From the NCBI RefSeq assembly GCF_022458985.1, contig NC_061789.1:18146357-18210356 (forward strand): 64,000 bases of DNA, in the 5' to 3' direction. The translations under genes were made by a program, and so were the position numbers. Origin of the DNA: Mugil cephalus (Eukaryota; Chordata; Actinopteri; Mugiliformes; Mugilidae). Below, piece by piece: positions 6,600 through 59,364 of the stretch. How positions within the stretch are numbered: the stretch's first letter is position 1; every line of letters begins with the position of its first letter. Under the pieces are notes generated by a model. The model made no database searches. It had not been told where the DNA came from and was given only the letters and a program-made list of their open reading frames with translations.

Positions 6600-6928
6600 C
6601 CTACCCAAACAGCCAAATCCATCCAATCACACAAGCCAATCCATGGCTTTCTTCTGCGCTCCGCGTTTTCCAGCCTGCCTCTGTCTCGTCCCACTCACAG
6701 TCTCTGTCAGAGCGCGGCGTTGACAGCTACTGGCCACTGATCAGCCCACTTTGTCTAGGTTTGTGTCTCCGTGCAAGACTGCTGAAAAAGACGCACTCAG
6801 ACTCTCATACTTGTTTTATTTGCAAGCCAAGCTTACGCAGCAGACGACGCGCCCGTCCACGGCAATAAAGGCACAAGTAGCGAAAAGTGCATTTCTAAAC
6901 TCATCACCGTCTCGCAGCACCCTGCACA
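6600..6928 (+). promoter_or_regulatory. vat1: vat1 promoter and 5' leader region
   Basis: Two CCAAT boxes lie 13 bp apart at 6623-6627 and 6636-6640. They are followed by GC-richer sequence (about 6650-6740) leading to the vat1 start codon at 6929. No ATG lies between about 6700 and 6928, so the leader would be free of upstream ORFs if transcription begins in that stretch. The transcription start itself cannot be placed from sequence alone. Confidence 0.5.
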
Positions 6929-9900
6929 ATGTCTGGAGAGGACGCACCTGCCCAGCAGCAAAACGCCGTGGACCAGAAACAGGAGACCAAACCCAACGAA
7001 GAGCCCAAAGCCGAGCCACCCAAGACGGAGTCCGCACCCGAAGGCGCCGCGGAGGCAGCGGCCACCCCTGCGGCGACCACCGAGAAGGTCCCCGAGGAGG
7101 AGACGTTTACCTACCGCGCTCTGGTGCTCACCGGCTACGGAGGCTATGATAAAGTCAAGCTGCAGGTGAAGAAGGGCAAGCCGGCGCTCAAGGCTGGCGA
7201 GGTCTTGGTGCGCGTCAAGGCTTGTGGGCTCAACTTCGCGGACTTGATGGCCAGACAGGGGCTGTACGATCGGCTGCCATCTCCGCCGGTTACCCCGGGA
7301 ATGGAGTGCTCCGGAGTGGTGGAGGCTGTAGGAGAAGAAGTAACGGACAGAAAAGTAAGCCCCCCCAGGCACTCAGCCTTTACACTGTCACACAAGACTA
7401 GAATTGGCTGTTTTTATTGTTAGAATGATTGTAGTTGCTTCGTTTTGATTCTGAACAGCTACATCTGGATATGGGCGTGTCACGCGTTGCTTGCTGCTCA
7501 GGCAATGTGGTGGTGCTGTACAATGTGTTAAACAGTTTTATGATTTAATGAATGAATTGAATGCCAATATGCCGTTAACTCGGGCAGTTAACACATAAAA
7601 TGGGGCGTTATAACGCGGATTTATGATAGAGCTCTTATTCATTATGTCTACTGTGCGTAAAAAGGAGACCGCGTGTGCTGTACAGAAGTTGAAAGCAATA
7701 AAGTGTGCTGGTTTGCACAGGTTGGATTTGAGTTCTGTGAGAAGCCCAAAGTGCGTGGGTAAATGGCACAAGTTGAGTACAATGCAAGCAGCAGAGGCAG
7801 CAGCAGCAGCAGGCGTCGCCCCTCTTGTCTCCCCTTTTCTTATTGCGCTGCCTGCGCGCGCTCAGACCGAGCGACTCAAAGTACAGAACAGTTTCTGAGA
7901 TTAATTTCACCGGTCACGATGAACATGCTTGTTAAAAAAAATCTAAACCTAAATAAATCAACGCAAGTCTGTGGGATGCTCTCCACCCTTGCTGCACCAG
8001 TGCACCTACGCTCTCTTGCGCTGTGATGTGCGCCAAGGTGCGGAGCGTTGCGTCAAGTTAGCCAGAGATAGCGGCGATGAGACCGGAAATGAGAGCGCTC
8101 TGCCTTCAAAATGAAAGCAGTGGACGCTTGCCTGTGACTTCTTTGTGTTTAAGCAGGGGAAAGAAGCGAAATGAAAATGCATGTCGGATATTAAAACGCA
8201 GAAAAGGTCGAGTACATATGAAGATGGTAGAGTTCTGAAGTTTAAATTTGCCTATTCACTGTACGAAATTTGTGATTTTTAAAAACGGCTGAGCCATGTC
8301 TGCAGTGGTGTCTCTTTCTGCCTCTTCTCTGGATTCAGCTCTGCAAATATTCTAACGTTTTAGATGACAATTACAAGACGTCTATTTGGACACCATCCAC
8401 TACTGCGTCCGTTACTTTGCCTGACGTATTTTCTAATTAACAATGGATTTTATTTTGAAAGGCGTGAAAAAAATACACCACTGTTAATAATGTGACTTGA
8501 CACCGGTGACAGAAACCGGAGTCACCGACGCCTTTTGTTACCGGGAGCGGCGGTGGCGCACAAGCGCACCAAATGGAAAGGGCGAGGCGCGACGCAACAC
8601 ACAGCATGCTGAGGGGAATGGGTCCACTCGCCCCCTTTGTCAGCAGATAGTGCATGGCCTCTGATATGTTCAGAAAATATGTAATATGCAATATTTACAA
8701 TCATCCACAGACCAAGATCAAAGTTCAGCCCCAATTAAACATGATAAAATAAGAGTCTTTTTTTTAATGCCCAACCGCGAAGAATGATGCGGTGATTACG
8801 AGAGGATTATATCTTTCTTGCATTGCATGATGAGTCACAGGCCTATATGTCTGTCCTGGTCTCCTGGCCGCCTGGCATCACCACGGTAACGCCTTTGAGA
8901 GGCAATTAAACTACAAAATCCAAATGTTACACACCGATGACTCACGCTGTTTGTTGTAAGAGTACCACATATTCTCACATCGTCCAGTTGAAAATCTGTG
9001 GATAACACAGTGTGGCGCAAGAGCAGAATCTGTGCATCTGACTGGGAGTGGCACATATGTCTGTAAAGTATATCCACTGCTCGTGGACGAGGACTCTCTG
9101 CACTGTAACGGGGAGATGATTAATTCATTGGTGATGGGTCAGCCGGCAGCAGCCAGACATCAAAGGTTAAGACCCTCGTGTTTCCAGAATACTTTATTGC
9201 TTCTTTCCACATTGTCAGTGATGTTGATTGGATTTAAAGGTCACAAACCACACGCAGATGCAGAAACACGCAGCTTGTCGCCACACATCCAGCGGCCTTT
9301 AGCTTGCAGAATTAAGAGCCAATCTTCCTAATGGATGGAGATCTCTGAGATCTTCTGGCAGCCAACTCAGAAGGAATGTGCTGACCTTGATGGCACAGAT
9401 TTCTTTTCTTTTTGGGTGGAGGGGGGGGGGGGGGGGGCATCAGTCGGTATTTCTTTTTTTTTTCTGTCTGCCTATCTATCTCTGCATCCCTCTCACATAC
9501 ACATGAGCACACAAAGACTTACAATGGTGGGTGTGTCTGAGTGTTTGCTCTGCATGCCATGTACACAAAGCTGTGAACACATAATGCCTTTTAATTAGAT
9601 AATGCAACGTAAACATCAGTGGCTAAGTAAAATGTGATTGATTTTTATTTAATCTTTATGTCATTTTAATAGGATAGAAAATCATATGGTCTGTAATGCT
9701 CTCAAACAGGCCGAGGTACAGTTATTATTTTTATATGAACAATATTTCTTGTGATAAAATAACAGTCGAGATTTCCTTTTGGGTTTAAGAAAATAGCTGT
9801 GTTCTTTAAGTAAACTCATTTCAAGCTTGTGCTGTGACAACTTCTCTGTTTATGCCTCCTTATTGTTTTGATTCTTGCCGGCTTTTCTATTACTCATTTA

Positions 9901-26025: not shown

Positions 26026-29000
26026 ATATATATGTATACAATAATATACAATGATACAAGGTTCACGTGACATAAACCAGACAAAACACCACATTCTGAT
26101 GTTTCAGCAGCAGTTAGAGGCCAATGTTTGCCAGGTTTCCTTAGTAAATAATCATCAAATGTTAGTCAGTCATTTTCCATCAATTCGCTGAGAGGTTGTT
26201 CCACCAGTAAGAGAGAAGATCGGCTAAGAGCAAATAAGGTCAGAGCTAATGAGGAAAGAGGGATAAAGTGGGAGATAAAGATAATCTGACAGTGAATTTA
26301 CCAGAGTTTACACTAGTGAACTAATTAAACTTTGAGATTAAGATACTCACCTGTTCAGAAGTTTTTCCTTGGCTTTCTCTTAAATCTCTTTCTGTCCTTT
26401 CACTTTCCTTCTGTGTCAGGTGCGGCGAACATGCTGGCGGGCCAGAAGAAGAATCTGCTCGCCGTGGCCAAGAACTGGTACCACCAGTTCTCCATCCACA
26501 CACTTAGCCTGATCCAGGGAAACAAGTCGGTGTGCGGCTTCCACCTGGGCTACCTGGACGGGGAGACGGAGCTCATCAGCCAGGCCATGAACACCATTCT
26601 GGATCTCTACAAGCAGGGGAAGGTCAAACCTCGCATTGACTCCACTTGGCATCTTGAGCAGGTTTGTGTCTGTCTTTTTCCTGGCCTACGCCCGGATTAT
26701 CATTTTTCTTCAGTGTGGCTGGGTTAACCAACAGAAGATCATGTTGTTATCATTCACCCTACAACCGACATTCCAGTCAGAAATATATTCATCAAAACAT
26801 TTCCTTTGCCTGGAATTTGAACTGTGCATGTCTTTGTTTTAATCTTTTTTTGGCTGATTCTGAACTCAAAAGTGAGTTTCCATTATAAGGGCTTCATGTG
26901 TGGACTTCAGAGTCATTTCCCCTGATTGTTAATGTGACTAAATCCATCCCCGTGCACCTCAGTTTGAATGATTCATTGTGACATGGTTGTATTTACACCT
27001 GAATTGCATGCATTTGTATGCAATGTGACTACAGCCCAGTCATGATCTGCAGGAGATGGGTGTGGCCCTGATTCAATGAGCCTAACATTCAACAGTTTGT
27101 CCACAAGAAGCCCTATGTGTCCTCTAGCACAACTCACTCAGCCAGACAGACTGAGATTGTTGCTGACAAAATTAACACGGCTAACAGATATGAATAGAGA
27201 GTGTGAAAACACAGATAGAAAGAGAGAGTCAGAGGCTGACATCCTCTGTTGTCAAAGTCAGTGCCGGTCAGTATTCGGGCTGTGTGACTGTGGCCAGATA
27301 GAAACACCCGCTGTCTTTCTCTGCCATCTGAAGCTCTTTCTCTGCCTCTTCATCTGTCCGCTCTTTATATCAGATTCTTTTTCTCTGTCTTTAGGTTATT
27401 GACTCCCTCTCCGTCTCACTCTATCTCACTGTATTCTCTCCTCCTCACAGTGTATCTTCTTTGCTCTTTCTCTCTTGTTGCTATGGTGACATCCTTTAGT
27501 CAGTGTGTGCGTCTGTCTTAGGGAGGGGCCCTGATGTATGAGAAAGAAACATGGAAGGAGTGTGTCTGTACAGAGGAGAGAAGAAGGTGCATCTGAGTCT
27601 GGCTCGGAGCAAATCACGGCGTGAAGTTTTCGGTTGATGTCTGTCTGCGCTAATGCTGCCGCTCGTAGGAGACACGAAGCTTTTCGGTTGATCCAGTCTA
27701 ATACTTGGTCAATCGTTATGACCTGGGTACGGAAGCCAAACCTTGACCCTTATTAATCACCCCCCTTCCCCCTCTGGCACTTCTAGTTTTTGCTCCATTA
27801 ATCAATGTACGTGCTTGAGTAATATTTGGAAATGAGCATAAATGCTTCATCCTGTGGCCTCTCATGATTCATTATCCACATCTGCACTGATCCCTGGGAG
27901 CTTAATGGTCATGCCACAAATAGCAGACTCTCGTCTGAGATGCCCGGGAGCAAGTTAGGTTGTCAGATCTTAGACAGTGAAGGGTGGAAGTGGGTGGGGT
28001 CTTCAAAAGAGCCTCTCGCTGTGACTTTCATTCACATTGAAGATGATTCTTATAATTCCTCGACTCACCCCTCCCTCCCTTTCAGTGCATGTTCTTCAAT
28101 CGAGGGATGCCAGTTTCTTCCCTCCTTCTCCTCCTCCTCCTCCTCCTCCTCACCCCTTCCTCTCCTCTCTCCCTCCACTTCGAACTCCCACACTCCCCCT
28201 CTTTCCCATGTGTCTGAATCGTCAGGGCCACGTTTCAGCCAGGCTTTACGTTGCTAGGAGATGGCCCTGTTGCCGTGGCATTGGTCGTTAGGTGGTCTGC
28301 CCGCCTCGCACAAACGGGGGGGATTGGAGGAAGGAGGGAGGGTGATGTGATAGAGAGAAAGGAACAGACAGTGGACAGAGCTCAGTGGTCATGAGGAGGG
28401 TGGGGCAGATCTGGACGGGATTCTCCACTCGTCTTTATGATAGATTGGAGTCGGCAGTCAATCCATCACTGCTAGGAAGTTTGGGGGTTGTCATTACAAC
28501 AGCCTGTGTCCCCTGCGGTAAAACGTATGGCTGAGTTCTCAAAAGCTCTTTTTCACGGATATGTTCACATTTTTCCAAGTCTGTCGTAAAACAGCATCCC
28601 CTTGTGAACATTACCAAATTTTACAGGTCACTGTAACCTTGTTTTTTACTTGCCAGTAAAGAAATCTTTTCTTAAATCAGTTTCATAAAATGCACGGACC
28701 TTGCTGAAAGTAACTGTTACTCTTAAGGCTTCAACAGTCTGAACTGCACTATTTTCAGGTTTCAGTCCAGTTTTAATGTTTTTTTTTTGTGAATGTCTGT
28801 CTCTTTTTGCGTGAAGAGCCGAAGGAGTCCCTCGGATGAGTTATGACACTTCCTCTCGCCTTTGTTTAGATATTTCTCTCCTGTTGCCTCCCTGTGCAGT
28901 GTTTCCTGCCTGAACTGCATTAACACAAATATGGAATTTCTACCAAATATCTGTCAAACTTTTTTGAATGCATCTGCACAGATGAAGGACTCTGGATTTC

Positions 29001-32504: not shown

Positions 32505-33880
32505 TCTAAAGGTCCCCTCATTTTCTGCTATCCAGTCCCTGCCTGGGCCAACTTCTCCTGGGTGGCAGCTAAAATCAAAGCATTCATCCATCCTTGACTG
32601 TGGGAAGTAAAATGTGGAGCAGGATACAGGATGGAGTGATCTGGGCTGGAGTGCGAGCGCCACGCTGGTGTGGGGAGTGATTGTGTCCTGTCAGCATCTG
32701 GTTAGTGTTCTGTTCTAATCTGCTGGGCTCCCTTTGTGAACCTGTGGACGGTGCTTCTGTTCCGAGTGCCATGTGAGAAACAAACGCTTTCAGTAAGGAA
32801 AAAAAAGAAAAAAAAACAACTTACTATGTTATTTTAATTTTCCTTTATATTTTTGTTGGTTTGTTTTGTTATCCAAGGGTTTAAAGTTCAAAGCTCATAC
32901 ACTTTATGTGGGGACCTGCCAACCTGCACTCCTTATAAATGTGATAAAGTCTTTCTGTTGGTCCAAACCATGTGTGCCAAATTGTATGTATATTCCTCTG
33001 TCAATGCTTTGAATATTAACAGTGCATAAAAAGTGTGAAGAAAGTTCTGTTTTTGGATGCGTTTCCGTCAACCTTGAAGAAAAAAAAAGTGAAAATACAA
33101 ACGAGTTGCTACAGTGTGTCAGGTTTGTATCTCAAATCCTCATGGGTGCTGCAGTTTACAAAAGGTTTAAGACAATTTTGGATTGGTTGTAGTCTTGCTC
33201 AAGCGTAGGCCTGCACTGTGCCTCCCTCCTCTCCTTGCACACATCTTACCTCAATCCGAGGCCCCTTCTTTGTATTTATATCCTTTTCACTGTGTTTTAG
33301 CAGCTCTCACATTGCGTCAACTCCAACGGGTTGACTCCTCCTCTGTGTGTTTACAACTAAAATATCAGTATCACAGTGAAAAGGAACTGGATAAGGTGCA
33401 TTTAAGACTCAAAAACTCAAATGCATACACATACGGCAATCTGCAAGTTCCCTCCAAATCCAAAGCTCCATGTTATTCTACTCTTTGGATTCCTTTTTCT
33501 TTCAGTTTGTTTCCAAATGGTTCATATAACAAGCGAGGGAGCAGATGTTTTCACACAGCTGTACAGGGATGCCAATACTGTAACCCAGCTGAACAAAACC
33601 CCTGCTTATTGGCTGACGATAGCTCAGCCCTGGCCTGCCCCAGACATTACATTTCCGCTTTACAGCTGATCTCGGTTCACTCAAGGATTGTCAGGAGTCG
33701 TTTTTCTTTTCCTGTGCTGCATCTGCAGAGCTTCTTGGCCCGTGCAGCGGCCCACGGGTCTGCCAAAACCCCTCTCCATACCAGCCCCTTCCCTCTGCAC
33801 ACGCATTCATAGAAAATAAAACATATAATTGACATCTGGAATTTGAAATTGCATGCGTTCATCTGCATGTGGAAAACAGA

Positions 33881-35316: not shown

Positions 35317-35686
35317 GATTTAGATTACAATCACATAGGACGGACAGTATAAAATGTAAATCATTACAGTACTGAACACAGTGTACAAAATAAAGTGAAT
35401 ATTTTATCAAATAAGCTTTAACTGTAAGTAAAAAATATATATATTCAGCAATGCTATGTGGTCCCTTTCGTCACCTTTCTCATAAGAAAATAAAAAAAGT
35501 TTTTAAAAATTCTGAATATCTACAGTACAATGTCATCCGTAACTAACTAGATTTCAGTTACTGTGCTGTGTGGAGATGCAATCGAAAACCACTAATTGGC
35601 TACAAGAGACACGATCAAAATACAAATACAGTGCAAATGGCTCCAACACAGAGAAGAATACATATTCAACAACATTAGAACTTCTT

Positions 35687-38600
35687 CTACGTATTTTGTT
35701 CAGACTTAGCTGGTGACTCCTCAATCCCGTGAGAGGTCAAGACTTGAGACAAGCGCGTCAAGTAAGAGGAATCTGGGTAGCCGTTCCTGGGAGAAAACAA
35801 AAAGAAGACTGTTCATCAGAGATCCACAGACATGTGTTTTGTGACCTTTAGTTGCGCAGCTCTGTTAGACATCATCACTGGCCTCGCTCACCCTGATTTG
35901 CCTCCCTGGATGCTGGTCTTGTGTGGGATGCAGTCCCAGACGACCTTGGCCCTTGCGTCTTTGCTTGTCACTGTAAAGGTGAGTCCCTGCTTGAAAGCTT
36001 TCTCCAGCCTCGGCAGGAGCTTCCTCGTCTTCTCGCAGTCAGGAAGGAAGGCGTCAAATATTCCCCCTTGAAATGGACTCCCGGGAGATGGGTGACCCTC
36101 CTGAGTAGATGGGAAACAAAGACTCTAGATATTACCATCCATAAACGAAAAGCAAAGTCTTGTTCGTATGAGTACAATAGCAGCACCCTGCAGTATGATG
36201 CTTGCAGATGGTTCAAGAAACATAAAAAAATAGACACTGTTTAATAATTCCACAAAAATACACCAATGTGGCACTTTAATTTCCAGTAACATAAATCATA
36301 GCAGGCCTCTCTGAAAACAACAACAACAAAAAAAAAACATTCTGAATTTTAAATATTATTATCAGAGTATAGTAATCAGTAAAGAAGATACCATTTATGC
36401 AGCCTTTTTAATTTCATGTCTCTTAAAAGCTTAATAGGCACAGCATTGCATTGATCTTAAGGCCTGTCAGATAGAATCGTTATCAGTGAGAATAACTTTT
36501 AAGTAAGCCACTCACCCCCTGGATACCATCAGGAATGGAGTAAGTGATCTTGATAGAGCCGTCCTTGCTGTGACCTGGTATGCTGATCTGTAGTCTAGAT
36601 TTGCTCATTCTGCCCTTGATGCCCGAGGGTTTGCGCTCCGTCTCCTGACAAACTCTGCAGTTGGCATGAACCTTGTCCAGGCACTTTGAGCATATGGTAG
36701 TCCCACACTTGGTTCTGGTCATAGGTGCCCCATTCTCCCCACATACACACAAGGACCCCAGGCCTCCTTGACCTGAGCTGGATTCCTCTGATGTGTTCTG
36801 GAACTCTGCCTGTTTTTGGCCTACACTGTCTATCTGGGTGGCATGGATGCTTCTCTCTTTTTCGGTCGAGGTTGTCACTGGAGCGACACCGTTCAAATGT
36901 TTGGTGCTTAAATCAATTCCTGTCGTAGAGTGGTTGACATATGGCTCGGGCGTCTGACCATCCATCTCAACTGTACTTTTAGTTTTTACTTTGTCCTTAA
37001 TGACATGGTCTTTCCTTGCTAACGACTGGCTAAGAGATCCATTCAAAATCTCTTTCTCACCAAAGTCTTTTCTGTATGTTGTTTTCCATTCCTCAGTCCA
37101 ACCACTTCCATCAGCTTTGCTTGTTTGGTCCTCTAGCATCACCTGGGAATTTCTGTTAAAGTGTAGACTGGCTTTGTGGTCCTCGTTTGTTTGTAAAGAC
37201 GTTGGTGAATTCCACAAGGAGGTAGCTTGGCTAGATAAGTGGTGCTGTTCGGTTGTTTGGACCAAATTGCCAGAAAATACCTCCCGCAGTGTAGCACCGA
37301 CCTGAGAGCACAGCTGTTGAGGACCAAGAAGAAATAAGGTCTTCTTCCATATCTGTATAGTAACCTTCTTGAAGCGGCTCTGTACCTCAGAACAACAAGC
37401 CTGTAAGGTTTCATCTGCTTTGTCGGTGACACCCAGCTCTGACAAGCGTAGCTGCTGCACAGAGAAGTCTGAACTAACTGAGTCAAACAGCCTCTGTAAA
37501 CCTTTCTGACATGAACTCACTGCGGATGGGTTTGCACCTCTTAAGGTGAGAGTCATCTCCCTGGTACCTTCTGACTGACTCTCTTTCATCTGGACATCAG
37601 AAATCAAGTCCTCCACTCTGGTGCTGTAGGCTTCTTTTATGTACTGCCACATCAAACTGGAGACTGTAAGCTCTGCACTGCAGACTTCCTGTTTGTCCCT
37701 TCCTGTTTGTGTGCTAAAACTCGAAGACCTGCCCCTGGATCTGACTGTGGATGTGCTGGAATCATCTTGACTCTTCTGACCCGTAACTTGAGCCTTCTGC
37801 TGAGGCCTTCCTGAGAAACTACTGGCCCGCTTCAAGGAGGATCCAAACTCGGCAGGTGAAGTACTTCCTGACAAACTGGCCTGAGTAGTGCTGAAGGGGG
37901 ATGCTACATTCTTTGGTCGAGCATCCATTAAATCTGGGCTTAGAGAGGTTTTATTCTGCATAGAGGCAGACGAAGGCATGGAATATCTCTCGGTCTTAAA
38001 CAAAATGTCTCCTCCTGTATTTTGGGATCTGGAGACTGCTTCACCAGTAATCCCTGATGTGTCTGACAACACATCACGCCCTAACATTGGCCCAGAACGG
38101 GGCTGTCTACTAGGAGATGAACTTGGTCGCAAGGTGAAGTCAGTTGGTCGACTGCCTAAAATAGACAGACCTGTGTCCTTAAACCGAGGAGCTAGTTTAT
38201 ATTTTTTGACTCCTTCAGCTCTCCTTTCATCTTCCTCTGCCCCCATCTGGTACATTCTGTCCTCTGAGGACCCTAAAGTGGAGGATGGAGGGAAAGGGAC
38301 TCTCTCTTCATCAAAATAAATTGATTGGCTTGGTTCATGCACTGGAATTCTAGGACTGGCTGCACGCTCTTTTTTATCTGTCACTTTACCATGGTCCAGA
38401 AGAAACTGCTTGGCGTCTGACACGTCACTACTGCTCCCGATAATGCAAATATTTTGGTCATCTTCATTTAGAAGAAGCTTGGGATATCTGACACTAAGAT
38501 GCTGTATTGCCTTTTGTAGCTCTCCACTGGGGGACAAGATAATCTTTGGAAGCTGGGATCGACGGGTCTTAGCCTCATTCTCCTGGTAAAGCCTACTGAT

Positions 38601-40010
38601 TGCCTTTTTTGCCAACTTCAAGCACTCCTGTTCTTCACCTCTTCCCCTCGATGCAGTAGAGAGTTGAAAAAACAGAGTGGTAACACCCTGATTTGTCATG
38701 TCCACCACCTCAACACCATACTGACTAAGGATATGCTGATATTCCTTCCGGCAGTGTTTTACCAGATACTGGAACATGTCTGCATCTACAATTAGTGACA
38801 AGTCCTCCGCTGATGTTGTAGGAAGCTGGATAGCTGCACCATCTGTCTGGCCAATACCTTCCCAGCCATAACTACCAGATGTCAGGTCTCTATTTGAACT
38901 TGACTTATACTCATCAGATGGCTTGTCAGTGAGGTTTTTTCCTCTTTGTTCTCTTTGCTTATTATGTTGCCTGCTCTGATCTTCTGTCTCCTGAGGATGC
39001 CGTGCTGTCTGAACAGACTTTGAACCACTTGAGGCAGACTGAGCGGAGTCTCTGTTTCCCACCAACTCTAGGCCTCCAGGTTGCCCTAGCAGTTGTCCTA
39101 AAGCAGCATGTACTTTGGAGAAAGTGCCTCTCACTGTACAGCATTCCTCAGAACCAATATAGTTTATCTGGACATCAGGGTGGCTTTTGCGAAGGTTTGT
39201 TAAAGCTGTGACTCCCCCAGGAAGCTGACTGTAATCAACAGTCGCCGTTAAACTTAAGATGACCTATGGTGACAGAAAAGGACAGATGATAAACACTTGT
39301 GAATTTTTTAAATTTTGCTATATATTCAGTATCTGTTACATATTTCCCAAATTTGCAGGTAACAGTACCTGATCAGGATCAAAGCTTTCACGATGCTCAG
39401 TTGCAGTGAGTTCATACGTCTTCTTGTCCACTTCCAGAATGTGCCGGCTGACTTGAATAATTCTCTGTGCCACTGTGTAGGGGGGGTGAGGGAGTCATCA
39501 GAGGGAAATCAATCAGCCCTGAGAAGCATCCTGACTAAGCGTTTTTATCGTTGGCCACTCCACTGACTTGCATGCCAACAGTTCACTGTAAATCACTGGT
39601 GACAGCAGACCTAGTGCTATACCTTGCTAATACTTTGTGAACGATTGGAATTAAATGTTGAAATCTTTAGAAAGCTTGTGAGATCCGAGCATTAATACAG
39701 TAAGTTCAATAAAAAGTATTTTCACGCGAGATTGCATCTGTAATAGAATCAATTAATTATTCAGAAAATACCCCCCTGCCTTACACTTTAAATGCAGAGA
39801 CCTGAACACACCCTGACCCTACTGACCTCTGCTGTCTTCGAAGGTGATTAGAGCAGAGACAAGTGTTGCCTTGACGATGGTGACATCGTCTATTTCCCCT
39901 CCTCCATTGCAGGCTCTCAGGAAGTGGATGAATAGCTTGTCTTTTAGCCTGTCATCATCAATGTCCGTGGGCAGGCCCGTCACCCTCACAGTCCTGCCCT
40001 GTTCTGCCAT
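35687..40010 (-). CDS. RBM43-like / Deltex-type (RING-like + DTC) protein, 5 coding exons
   Basis: The coding exons, in gene order, are 40010-39827, 39472-39369, 39263-36516, 36100-35892 and 35786-35687. All joins are GT-AG and the frame closes at 1,114 residues. Residues 1 to about 90 form an RRM-like fold of the RBM43/NMI-IFI35/PARP14 kind (V-R-V-T-G-L-P, then N-G-G-G-E-I). Residues 251-390 resemble the C-terminal half of RBM43 (V-D-A-D-M-F-Q-Y-L; I-I-G-S-S-S-D). A related W-Q-Y-I module follows at about 629-760. Residues 390-625 and 760-930 are low-complexity and probably disordered. Residues 935-968 form a RING-like cluster with seven cysteines. The Deltex C-terminal (DTC) fold runs from about 980 to the end (I-P-D-G-I-Q-G, H-P-S-P-G, P-H-K-T-S, G-Y-P-D). 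DTC proteins such as DTX3L are ubiquitin E3 ligases that bind ADP-ribose/NAD and act in DNA repair and interferon responses (family knowledge). It may be a DTX3L relative, but the RBM43-like half leaves orthology open, so no symbol is given. The ATG at 40010 follows CTCCAG, so a 5' non-coding exon is likely. Confidence 0.9.
36648..36749 (-). other. RING-like cysteine cluster in the Deltex-type protein
   Basis: Residues 935-968 read C-V-C, then K-C-G-T-T-I-C-S-K-C, then H-A-N-C-R-V-C. The spacing follows the RING of DTX proteins, except that the first pair is CxC rather than CxxC. The histidine usually found two residues after the third cysteine is replaced by threonine. One histidine is present at residue 962 and might substitute. 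Confidence 0.75.
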
Positions 40011-40720
40011 CTGCTGGAGGAAACACAATCAGTGCTGCGAAGGGGAAACTGTCGAAGCAACACAAATACGTCTGCAGAAAGATGAAAGTGGTGAGAGTGA
40101 ATATCGGCATGACACTGACAAAGAGCCAAAACACAACATGCCACCACGAGGCTTTTAGGATCGGGCAACCCTGCAAAGACCCCACCCTTACAAATATTCA
40201 GAGACGCATCTTTAATAATCTGACACCCTCTATTGGGGGTTACTAGGACACTACATCAACATACTAAAACATATCTATTATCAACACCAATCAAAGTATA
40301 AAACGTATTTAAATGTTTTTTTGTTTTGTTTTTTCTAATTCTGCAAAAAAAAAAAAACTGTCTTTTACCGGAAGCATCTCTGTACAATGGTAATGGTGAT
40401 CAAGGTGCAGCCTATAGACCGTGACCTATACAGTCATGGTTGTGACAGATGTTAAAGTTAACGCCCCTTTATTCCCTTTCTTTCTCCGTCCCACCGTCTG
40501 TTAACCTATTTGCAAATAACTGACAGAGGCCAAACTGCCCTTATTCATTAACCGGAAGGCAGCTTATCGCACACGTCAGATATGGTACATCAAGTAAACA
40601 CTATGTTTATTTGAAATCTTTTCGAGTCAAAAGACTAAGTGCTGAGCATGTACGGCTCTGCGTTGTCAAAACATGCATCTAGCAGCGAAGAGGAAGCCAC
40701 ATTGCAGCGCAGTGTGTCAA

Positions 40721-40730: not shown

Positions 40731-40926
40731 AAAATCAGACACATCTCAACTGACAATCTGCTTATCGCACCATCGACGGATCTTGTATTTGAGCATAACG
40801 TTAATTCCACGCGTGAACAAACACCTTGGTCATCTTTTAGATTTGCAACGATTACTGACCTTATAAAGGTTTGGCGGCGGGTTCTCGCTATTGTTCAAAA
40901 GATCGTCACTCTTGACGAGCCATGCA

Positions 40927-40940
40927 GGAAAAGTGAAACT
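40927..40940 (-). promoter_or_regulatory. ISRE-like element
   Basis: In the sense of the minus gene this reads AGTTTCACTTTTCC, matching 11 of 12 positions of the classical AGTTTCNNTTTC element. A TATA-like TTTATAA lies about 60 bp downstream at 40867-40861. Together with the motif at 40721 it suggests interferon control of the RBM43/Deltex-like gene. The transcription start was not located. Confidence 0.5.
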
Positions 40941-41606
40941 ATACACTTATTATGAGATATGCTTCCTCCTCGCTAGGGGGCGACCAAGTGTCTTTCCCTT
41001 CCCTGAGGCTATGTGTATCCTATGTGATTTATGTGCAGATGAGTCAGAGGTGAGCAGGTGTCCCTGCTGGTTTTTCTACAATTATGTACGTCTCTGAAAA
41101 ACTAAGAATTCGCTCTCGGCAAAGCTGTGTCGTGTTTATTATGTGAATAGAAAATCTTAATTACTATCACCACTACTATAACTACTACAGTATAGTAATA
41201 ATAACTCCAACCAAAATTATAAATTCTAACATATCATGTTATTATCATTGTTGTTTTTGTGATGGTGTTTTATTTATTTATTTATTTATGTTTTTTTTAT
41301 CTAGAAAGGTGTTACAAAGTTACAACAGCAAAACAAAAGGTTGAGTAGACTACATAATCCAAAATAAATAAATTACAATGATTTAGGGCTCGGTGATAAT
41401 AGAAAAAGAAAGAAAAGAACAATAAATAAAATATAAAAATTAGGCAGGAAATTTATTTAAGAAGCGACTTCGAGATTGTGAGGTCCTTGGACAGATATCA
41501 TTCCAGAATTAAGGCACCAGGTTTTTGTTTGAGGACCTCAGGCAAAACAGGGTGGGCAGGGTAAGAACATCTCCAAAATACAGTGTTGATCACAAAGAAT
41601 CAGTAA

Positions 41607-42778: not shown

Positions 42779-45123
42779 ATGGCCAAGTTATTTGAGTCTA
42801 TTGGAAAGTTGGGGATTGCCCTAGCCGTCGGTGGAGGTGTTGTGAACTCCGCCCTTTTTAATGGTGAGTTCTGGTCAGACTAAATATCTTACAGTCTGGA
42901 AAATTATACTGTATTTATTTACGAAGTGGTAGTATACATTAGTATTCATTGTAGCAATAATATTACACTACAGCCCTCACTCAAACCCCTTCCATTGATA
43001 TGCAGTGGTTTATGTTGATATGTTGTCATTTGTGTGTTGGATTAGTGAATGTCTTCTAAAATGTTGTGCTATTGAACTATAATTTAGTTTTGAACTAATA
43101 TGCGTTGGATGTTGAAAATGAGTTTGAGCTCTTCTTTTTATTCTGATAGTCTAATTTATGTTTTTGTATATTTTACACTTTTATTTTTAAACTTATTTAA
43201 GTGCTTGTCTTGTACCATAAAGCAAAGTTATAGGAGTCAAATAGGAGTCAAATTCCTTATATGTGTACACATACTTGGCCAATGAGGCTGATTCTGATAA
43301 AAATGTTTGGCAGGTTTTAAGTTGCGTGCACCTTGTATGAGAGATTGACTATCCCTCTTGCGGCAGTTGATGCAGGGCATCGTGCCGTGATATTTGACAG
43401 GTTCCGAGGCGTACAGGACACTGTTGTCGGTGAAGGGACACACTTCATCATTCCCTGGGTTCAGAAACCTATCATCTTTGATTGCCGCTCCCGTCCACGC
43501 AACGTGCCTGTCATTACAGGCAGTAAAGGTACATGTATAATCTTCTATTTCCTACTATTAAATCTTGTGTGCATTTAAAAATAAGTAGGATTTATGCTGT
43601 ATCTGCAGCATTTGAAACGTGCCATTTTTGTTTTATCATAGCAATAATAATAATGATAATGATAATAATAATATTAATTAATGTCATCCAAATATAATAA
43701 AGCTGCATGTGTTCATATTTTAATCTGTGGGAAAATGTTTTTCACTTATATGCCAGTATATACAATATGACTTACTTTTGCGCCATTCACTCCACAGATC
43801 TTCAGAATGTTAACATCACATTGCGTATTCTGTTCCGACCGGTCTCGAGCCAGCTACCACGCATCTTTACTAGTATTGGTGAGGACTATGATGAGAGGGT
43901 GCTGCCATCCATCACCACAGAGGTCTTAAAGGCTGTAGTGGTGAGTGTTGATCTTTAAGATAGTTTGTACATATGTATTCATACACACACTTGCCAGTTC
44001 TTTAGGTATCCTATAGAAAATGAATGCATTCAAATGACTCACCTGCACTGCGAATCTTATGACATTTAGCATTAGTTTGAAGTAACTGAGAGCTGTTGAT
44101 TCAACTGTTTTCATTTTGGAGGTTGTGGTTTATAGTACAAATTGTGTTGTGTTATAGTTAAACATGGTTCTATTATTTTGCCAACCCCATTTTAGTCACT
44201 GATCTAGATAGAATATCAGAAACACTTTAGTGATTAATTCAGTACAGTTTTACAGCTCCACAAACTACATCCTCGAAATAGATTATCGGTTAAGTAACCA
44301 CCTATCTGGCGCCGTTTCAATGTAATCTTAACATTAGAACAGTCATGAAGCTAAAATTTAGGGCAGGATTGTTCACATTGGAATGCCTTTGTTTTTACTA
44401 GTTTACCTAATAAACTGGTGATTGAGTGTAGTGTAGTGACATAATGGGTGACTGTGGGGATAAAATCATTATTTTCATACCAGACTACCATATGTCTTTC
44501 TTACAGGCCAGGTTCGATGCTGGTGAGCTCATCACTCAGAGAGAACATGTTTCTCGTCAAGTCAGTGAGGACCTTACAGAAAGAGCCTCCACTTTCGGCC
44601 TCATCTTGGATGATGTTTCACTGGTATGAAATACTATAAATAAACATTGAAACAGTGTTTGTGTTATCTTTTTGGTTGTTTCTTAACTTGACTAAACAAT
44701 TTTATTGTGTACTTTCAGACGCACTTGACCTTTGGCAAGGAATTCACAGAGGCTGTTGAGATGAAACAGGTTGCCCAGCAGGAGGCAGAGAGGGCCCGTT
44801 TCATTGTAGAAAAGGTAATGTTTTTTATATACTAATCCCTAACTACTTGTGCATTTAAGTCTTTGTTGAATGAATGTTAAACCACTCTAATTGTAATTTT
44901 ATCCTTTTAGGCAGAACAACAGAAGCAGGCTGCTATCATCTCCGCAGAGGGAGATTCCCAAGCTGCCTTGCTCATTGCCAACTCTCTGATGGCAGCTGGT
45001 GATGGTCTGGTAGAGCTCCGTAAGCTGGAGGCAGCCGAGGACATCGTCTTCCAGCTCTCACGTTCACGCAATGTCACTTACCTGCCCTCAGGACAGGGCA
45101 CATTGCTTCAGTTGCCTCAGTGA
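42779..45123 (+). CDS. phb1: Prohibitin 1 (6 coding exons)
   Basis: The coding exons are 42779-42863, 43367-43528, 43798-43940, 44507-44623, 44719-44814 and 44911-45123. All joins are GT-AG, giving 271 residues, one fewer than human prohibitin. With prohibitin 2 it forms ring-shaped scaffolds in the mitochondrial inner membrane that stabilise new proteins and cristae (family knowledge). Residues 2-25 form the hydrophobic N-terminal anchor. The SPFH/PHB fold covers about 26-187, with [13 protein letters not shown] at its start and R-S-R-P-R-N-V-P-V near residue 70. An Ala/Glu/Lys-rich coiled coil follows at about 177-220. The C-terminus keeps the family end L-L-Q-L-P-Q. No frameshift or missing motif is seen. 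The gene is divergent from the RBM43/Deltex-like gene and in tandem with znf652. Confidence 0.98.
44106..44477 (+). repeat. Dispersed repeat R, uninterrupted copy
   Basis: Lies in phb1 intron 4. It aligns with 54834-54886 plus 55445-55698 in znf652 intron 4. Shared phrases include CACAAACTACATCCTC, ACATTAGAACAG and CCTAATAAACTGG. The last is widespread in fish repeats. The family was not identified. It acts as an empty site for the hAT-like insertion in the other copy. Confidence 0.75.
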
Positions 45124-50797: not shown

Positions 50798-51263
50798 GTA
50801 ACGCACAGTAAATGGCTGTACCAGACACAGAGGTCCTCACAGAATTTCATTGTATGCTGTTGAGCTGCTCTGCAGTTTGACGTCCCCAGCACTCTACAGG
50901 GCAGCCGCCCTCAGAGAAACTGAATCTGAGAACTGTCACCAACTCCAGTAATTACTGAAGTGGAACTTAGCTTTACATGCAATCCGAGCCTTTCATTTTG
51001 CATTCTGAATTTTAAGCATATGGAACAAAATTTGGAACCGATTGTATGTCGTTCCAACTGCGTTTCTTACCTTGGAAAGCATGGATGCTCTCTTTGAATC
51101 AGGTTGACAGTCTCTCACCTCATCCCCTCCTTCCTGTCACTTCAACCAAAGGAAGGTGGGGGATTGGTGTGGCGTCCCCTGCCCCTCCTTGTAGGGTAGG
51201 CTAGTCTACATAACCCTTATTCTCTTGCTTTGCCGTGTGCACCTACCAACTCCATCCTTCCCC
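50798..51263 (+). other. znf652: znf652 5' leader in exon 2, with three upstream ORFs
   Basis: The exon opens at 50798 and the main ATG is at 51264. Upstream ORFs run 50812-50880 (22 codons), 51020-51097 (25 codons) and 51046-51204 (52 codons). All end before the main start, which suggests leaky scanning or reinitiation if this leader is used. Confidence 0.7.

Positions 51264-59364
<8,101 letters not shown>

What the first reader, a model, noticed from the sequence alone, without database searches (positions are those of the whole stretch)
35687..40010. Chimeric RBM43-like / Deltex-type protein
One gene joins two halves that in human are separate proteins: an RBM43-like N-terminal part (RRM-like fold, then the V-D-A-D-M-F-Q-Y-L and I-I-G-S-S-S-D block) and a Deltex RING-like + DTC end. 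The exon joins and frames I rebuilt are all consistent, and most of the N-terminal half and the RING-like cluster share one 2.7-kb exon, so an assembly join of two genes is unlikely. This suggests an E3 ligase whose targeting arm is related to RBM43/PARP14 modules.
Basis: partly seen in the sequence, partly recalled or inferred. Interest (0 to 1): 0.78.

Follow-up and report, generated by a model that had tools for sequence, protein, structure and literature searches.

The report
DTX3L-type protein with altered ligase end
A vertebrate (probably fish) gene has the same order of modules as the known human immune protein DTX3L, so it is not a strange fusion, but key residues of DTX3L's enzyme end are replaced, which suggests it works as a scaffold rather than as a ubiquitin ligase.

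Summary
The gene is real: five minus-strand exons (40010-35687), GT-AG joins, 1,114 aa. 'Separate proteins in human' is wrong: human DTX3L is itself RRM, five KH-like domains, RING, DTC. This protein follows that order: NID/RRM 1-96, KHL1 97-157, KHL2-3 250-390, KHL4-5 615-770, RING-like 935-968, DTC 979-1104; KHL1 and KHL4-5 rest on predicted folds. The 'E3 ligase' reading is weakened: no RING model reaches cut-off, the RING histidine position is Thr, the first Cys pair is CxC, and positions matching DTX3L H707, Y719, E733 are P, N, V. I read it as a DTX3L/RBM43-type scaffold with an altered ligase end. It lies tail-to-tail with VAT1, where chicken and cattle lists put IFI35. It has a predicted D2/KHL1-like fold that one paper dates to amniotes. 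No relatives, expression data or own genome could be examined; 'fish' is inference.

The parts
39827..40010 (-). exon 1 (aa 1-62, first part of NID/RRM); ATG at 40010; acceptor-like ...CCTCCAGCAG just before the ATG suggests an upstream noncoding exon
39369..39472 (-). exon 2 (aa 62-96, end of RRM)
36516..39263 (-). exon 3 (aa 97-1012), 916 codons without a stop
39081..39263 (-). KHL1 / D2-like predicted fold (aa 97-157)
38382..38804 (-). KHL2-KHL3 (aa 250-390), includes VDADMFQYL and IIGSSSD
   Evidence: Pfam KH_DTX3L 26.8 bits, cut-off 27.4; with recalled human letters
37242..37709 (-). KHL4-KHL5, predicted fold (aa 615-770)
   Evidence: single-sequence model, pLDDT 66; KH domains lead; sequence evidence mixed
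36648..36749 (-). RING-like cluster (aa 935-968): C935, C937, C949, C954, C957, H962, C965, C968
   Evidence: no RING model above cut-off
36516..36617 (-). DTC, first part (aa 979-1012)
35892..36100 (-). exon 4, DTC middle (aa 1013-1082); P1071 (35924-35926) at the DTX3L H707 position
35687..35786 (-). exon 5, DTC end and stop; N1083 (Y719 position) and V1097 (E733 position)

Best explanation
The gene encodes a DTX3L/RBM43-type protein: an RRM (NID-like), KH-like modules in the positions of the five of DTX3L, two long polar linkers, and a C-terminal RING-like + DTC unit. Inferred working: RRM and KHL1 help it self-associate and the KH-like pairs bind partners, as described for DTX3L with itself, PARP9 and PARP14; the C-terminal unit keeps the DTC fold but has lost residues needed for DTX3L-type ubiquitin transfer to nucleic acid or ADP-ribose, and probably normal E2 recruitment. 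It would then act as a scaffold or competitor in the interferon-linked DTX3L-PARP9-PARP14 / NMI-IFI35 network. Shown here: the gene, the NID/RRM and DTC domains, the residue changes. Supported by predicted folds: KHL1 and KHL4-5. Inferred: partners, activity, induction and host.
For: Gene model. Pfam NID, RRM_PARP14, KH_DTX3L (just under cut-off), DTC. KHL1 fold: 8r79_A, DTX3L D2. KHL4-5 fold: 10 of the first 11 rows of the VIA list are KH domains by title. DTX3L order (PMC11080071 passages). Pocket residues: alignments with DTX2, DTX1 and DTX3L chains put P, N, V at H582/H707, H594/Y719, E608/E733; H707A abolished and E733A considerably impaired ubiquitination of DNA, Y719A was defective (PMC11460948 passages). 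RING: best RING model zf-RING_5 12.3 bits (cut-off 27.9) against 35.5 bits (cut-off 27) for recalled DTX3L with zf-C3HC4_2.
Against: One sequence only: whether the replaced residues are conserved in relatives is unknown. Seven Cys and one His remain in the RING-like cluster, so a variant zinc site and some E2 binding are possible, and ubiquitination of proteins by a RING need not use the DTC pocket; the Y719 position differs within the family anyway (His in DTX2). The folds come from single-sequence models: for KHL4-5 only the best of five models reached pLDDT 66, the others 38 to 48. KHL4-5 by sequence: a family profile without this protein did not beat shuffles (7.6 bits, exceeded by 3 of 2000), only one containing its own KHL2-3 did (18.1 against at most 12.3 in 2000; profiles hold recalled letters). 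KHL1 alone: no convincing match to recalled RBM43 (E 0.17) or to DTX3L D2, no Pfam DTX3L_a-b hit, no PDB sequence hit; 8r79_A is tied with other folds. Papers differ on which KH-like pair of DTX3L binds PARP14.
Confidence: 0.55

Rival explanations
1. An active E3 ligase whose RBM43-like arm selects targets: the variant RING still binds zinc and an E2, and the DTC only positions substrate.
For: DTC well kept (1e-33); eight Cys/His in the RING-like cluster, H962 might replace the missing ligand.
Against: No RING model near cut-off; Thr at the usual His, CxC instead of CxxC; DTC residues at the H707/Y719/E733 positions replaced.
Confidence: 0.25
2. A recent lineage-specific fusion of an RBM43 gene with the 3' end of a Deltex gene.
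For: Residues 1-395 score 72 bits with RBM43 and 37 with DTX3L; the end scores 102 bits with DTX3L (recalled letters). A gene named RBM43 is mentioned separately in a paper found with the search word fish (PMC8794199, one supplement legend).
Against: A KHL4-5-like pair lies between the two 'halves' as in DTX3L; KHL1 to RING is one exon; DTX3L has the same order.
Confidence: 0.1
3. A decaying gene on its way to loss, its C-terminal domain no longer selected.
For: Catalytic positions replaced.
Against: 916 codons without a stop, intact splice sites and a well-scoring DTC.
Confidence: 0.07
4. Gene-model or assembly artefact joining two genes.
For: No transcript data were available.
Against: Both halves share one 2.7-kb exon; the module order matches DTX3L.
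Confidence: 0.03

Closest known systems
DTX3L (Deltex E3 ubiquitin ligase 3L)
   Same: Order RRM, KHL1, KHL2-3, KHL4-5, RING position, DTC
   Different: RING not canonical; DTC positions H707/Y719/E733 are P/N/V; long inserts; flanking genes identified are VAT1 and a Band_7 (prohibitin-like) gene, PARP9 itself was not searched for
RBM43
   Same: Residues 6-376 collinear, 26% identity, 72 bits (human letters recalled)
   Different: RBM43 as recalled is 357 aa and has no Deltex hit
NMI / IFI35 (NID proteins)
   Same: NID model 1.1e-17; solved NMI NID 1.2e-7, IFI35 NID chains 1.3e-4 and 1.5e-4; sits beside VAT1 as IFI35 does in chicken and cattle lists
   Different: NMI and IFI35 end in tandem NIDs (PMC13030082 passages); here one RRM/NID is followed by KH-like and Deltex modules
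PARP14 N-terminal RRM/KH modules
   Same: RRM_PARP14_3 2.6e-8, RRM_PARP14_1 4e-6
   Different: No macrodomain, WWE or ART model among the 10 families listed at E up to 1

Membership tests
DTX3L | N-terminal RRM | tested here: met
   NID 1.1e-17, RRM_PARP14_3 2.6e-8, RRM_PARP14_1 4e-6
DTX3L | D2/KHL1 domain | tested here: inconclusive
DTX3L | KH_DTX3L domain (KHL2-3) | tested here: inconclusive
   26.8 bits, E 5e-6, curated cut-off 27.4
DTX3L | KHL4-5 pair | tested here: inconclusive
DTX3L | C3HC4 RING | tested here: not met
   best RING model 12.3 bits, cut-off 27.9; Thr at His, CxC
DTX3L | DTC domain | tested here: met
   PF18102 1e-33; 3pg6 2e-21
DTX3L | catalytic/pocket residues H707, Y719, E733 | tested here: not met
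   P1071, N1083, V1097 (residues named)
DTX3L | locus beside PARP9 with shared promoter | tested here: inconclusive
   flanking genes identified are VAT1 and a prohibitin-like gene; no search for PARP9 itself was run
RBM43 | RRM plus KH-like half | tested here: met
   72 bits over 6-376, with recalled human letters only
RBM43 | ends after the KH-like half | tested here: not met
   DTC present; RBM43 end from recalled letters
IFI35/NMI | tandem NIDs | tested here: inconclusive
   two NID stretches, both within aa 1-96, which looks like one RRM split by the profile
active E3 ligase | ubiquitin transfer | not testable with these tools
   needs biochemistry

The most novel reading that the evidence does not exclude
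RBM43, NMI and IFI35 descend from a DTX3L-type ligase that lost its RING-DTC end. This gene, on the IFI35 side of VAT1 and most like RBM43 in its first 390 residues, is a surviving intermediate that still has the ligase end but with its active residues gone: a pseudo-ligase.
Probability: 0.3. Interest if true: 0.62.

Novelty: new variant of a known kind. Interest (0 to 1): 0.38.

Why it matters
It would tie RBM43, NMI/IFI35 and DTX3L into one family with a shared layout (NMI, IFI35 and the DTX3L-PARP9-PARP14 group are interferon-linked; for RBM43 that link is recalled), and offer a natural pseudo-ligase to separate the scaffold role of DTX3L from its ubiquitin chemistry. It also bears on a published view that the D2 domain of DTX3L appeared with amniotes (PMC10955461; the same paper reports a Foldseek D2 match in zebrafish): a D2-like fold is predicted here in what is probably a fish.

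Tried and rejected
No relatives: genome contigs (46 pattern stretches, none confirmed by tblastn) and viral contigs (8 stretches, none confirmed) gave nothing for exon 3; these hold prokaryotes and viruses. No second copy of the gene in the window by tblastn (one stray hit, E 0.79); recalled DTX3L and RBM43 hit the window only inside this gene, apart from stray hits at E 1.5 or worse. Recalled RND2: best E 0.40. No tandem repeats in 35600-40100. Pairwise tests of single modules with recalled human letters, 60 shuffles each: KHL1 z 2.8 (RBM43) and 2.9 (DTX3L), the first KHL4-5 slice 2.4 and 1.8, so neither is convincing alone (that slice began too late, at aa 641). Promoter: GAAANNGAAA occurs 10 times in the window (4.7 expected, 0 of 100 shuffles reach 10), the one nearest the ATG at 41402 in an A-rich run; a one-mismatch ISRE-like site at 40929-40940 and TTTATAA near 40866 lie upstream, one of 7 such sites in the window (2.6 expected), so only a lead. 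(a bacterial promoter scan) says nothing here.

Literature: ten searches. The four papers that hold both RBM43 and DTX3L were judged by title and abstract start only and do not seem to relate the two. Two of four papers hold 'DTX3L-like' and are on fish (listing only), so such proteins are already annotated. Papers were seen as passages (PMC11080071, PMC11460948, PMC13224862, PMC13030082, PMC7240924, PMC12075139, PMC8794199) or as passages plus two sections (PMC10955461); none was read whole.

Rejected: assembly chimera (one exon joins both halves); 'separate in human' (DTX3L). The organism was not identified; 'fish' is inference from gene content and layout, from no call.

Full report
Observation. 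Exon 3 has 0 stops in 916 codons, the other five frames 30 to 59. An acceptor-like sequence just before the ATG suggests a noncoding first exon.

Modules. Pfam on the whole protein and on five segments: NID 1.1e-17, RRM_PARP14_3 2.6e-8 and RRM_PARP14_1 4e-6 on residues 1-96; KH_DTX3L 5e-6 on residues 255-383 but 26.8 bits, under a cut-off of 27.4; nothing above cut-off on the KHL1 and KHL4-5 segments; DTC 1e-33. PDB sequences (7 distinct sequences at E up to 1): DTX2 1.2e-25, DTX1 5e-22, DTX3L 2e-21, NMI NID 1.2e-7, two IFI35 NID chains 1.3e-4 and 1.5e-4, and a kinetochore chain at 0.0065 that I take for chance. The stretches 396-640 and 796-935 are poor in hydrophobic residues (22-23%); that they are disordered is inference.

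Comparison with DTX3L and RBM43. Passages of PMC11080071 give human DTX3L as RRM (1-95), KHL1 (130-200), KHL2-3 (230-365), KHL4-5 (366-540), then RING and C-terminal domain; PMC13224862 passages agree. So the layout reported as a chimera is that of DTX3L. Pfam on the recalled letters finds RRM_PARP14_1, DTX3L_a-b, KH_DTX3L twice, RING and DTC in DTX3L, and NID (27.3 bits) but no KH_DTX3L or DTC in RBM43. These are leads, not tests.

The ligase end. From the printed alignments with database chains, the positions of DTX2 H582, H594 and E608 (DTX3L H707, Y719, E733) are P1071, N1083 and V1097. [quoted passage not shown] the Y719 position is His in DTX2. The RING-like cluster has C935-x-C937, C949, T951 where DTX3L has His, C954, C957, H962, C965 and C968 (the Thr is read from the alignment with recalled DTX3L). 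No RING model reaches cut-off, while recalled DTX3L scores 35.5 bits with zf-C3HC4_2. Ligase chemistry of the DTX3L type is therefore unlikely; RING-only activity is not excluded.

Neighbours. To the left on the plus strand is VAT1: the exon at 6899 gives 4e-30 to VAT1; a later frame at 26.3 kb gives ADH_zinc_N_2 at 3e-4, below its cut-off, and is VAT1-like by eye. It runs toward this gene, tail to tail; of the frames between them only one (33171-33809) was tested and it hit nothing. To the right a Band_7 gene, prohibitin-like by eye, lies on the plus strand from about 43.3 kb (one exon above cut-off, two below), then a C2H2 zinc-finger gene that I recall as ZNF652-like. In chicken and cattle region lists IFI35 stands next to VAT1 (PMC7240924 and PMC12075139 passages; the cattle list has STAT3 between RPL27 and IFI35, so it is not strictly in map order). 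That human IFI35 and VAT1 are tail to tail is recalled. So this gene lies on the IFI35 side of VAT1; I recognised no IFI35-like frame in the lists, which were read by eye only.

How it most likely works. By analogy with DTX3L, KHL1 serves self-association (PMC10955461) and the KH-like pairs bind PARP14 and PARP9; on the sites papers differ: KH2-3 for PARP14 and KH4-5 for PARP9 (PMC13224862), KHL4 for both (PMC11080071). The best reading is a scaffold or competitor with an altered ligase end. No partner, induction or activity was shown. PMC10955461 states that the D2 region is lacking in zebrafish DTX3L, only half recognisable in salmon, and emerged with amniotes, while its own Foldseek search found a 99% match in zebrafish; the D2-like fold predicted here suggests that the module is older but has diverged beyond sequence recognition.

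Verdict. Real gene, useful observation, interpretation half right. Ordinary in layout, unusual in its replaced catalytic residues and in its place beside VAT1. One sequence without relatives cannot settle whether this is a conserved pseudo-ligase.

Noticed in passing
6899-7423 and 26329-26727, + strand: VAT1 exons (the first by phmmer 4e-30, the second by eye and a sub-cut-off Pfam hit), tail-to-tail with the studied gene.
   Followed up: partly
43321-45123, + strand: Prohibitin-like (Band_7) exons, head-to-head with the studied gene.
   Followed up: partly
51195-59364, + strand: C2H2 zinc-finger gene with a long Glu/Asp-rich stretch, ZNF652-like by eye.
   Followed up: partly
1368-1694, - strand: Open frame that looks like a piece of a non-LTR retrotransposon protein (by eye only).
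   Followed up: no
40929-40940 and about 40866: ISRE-like AAAAGTGAAACT and a TATA-like TTTATAA upstream of the gene; weak against chance.
   Followed up: partly
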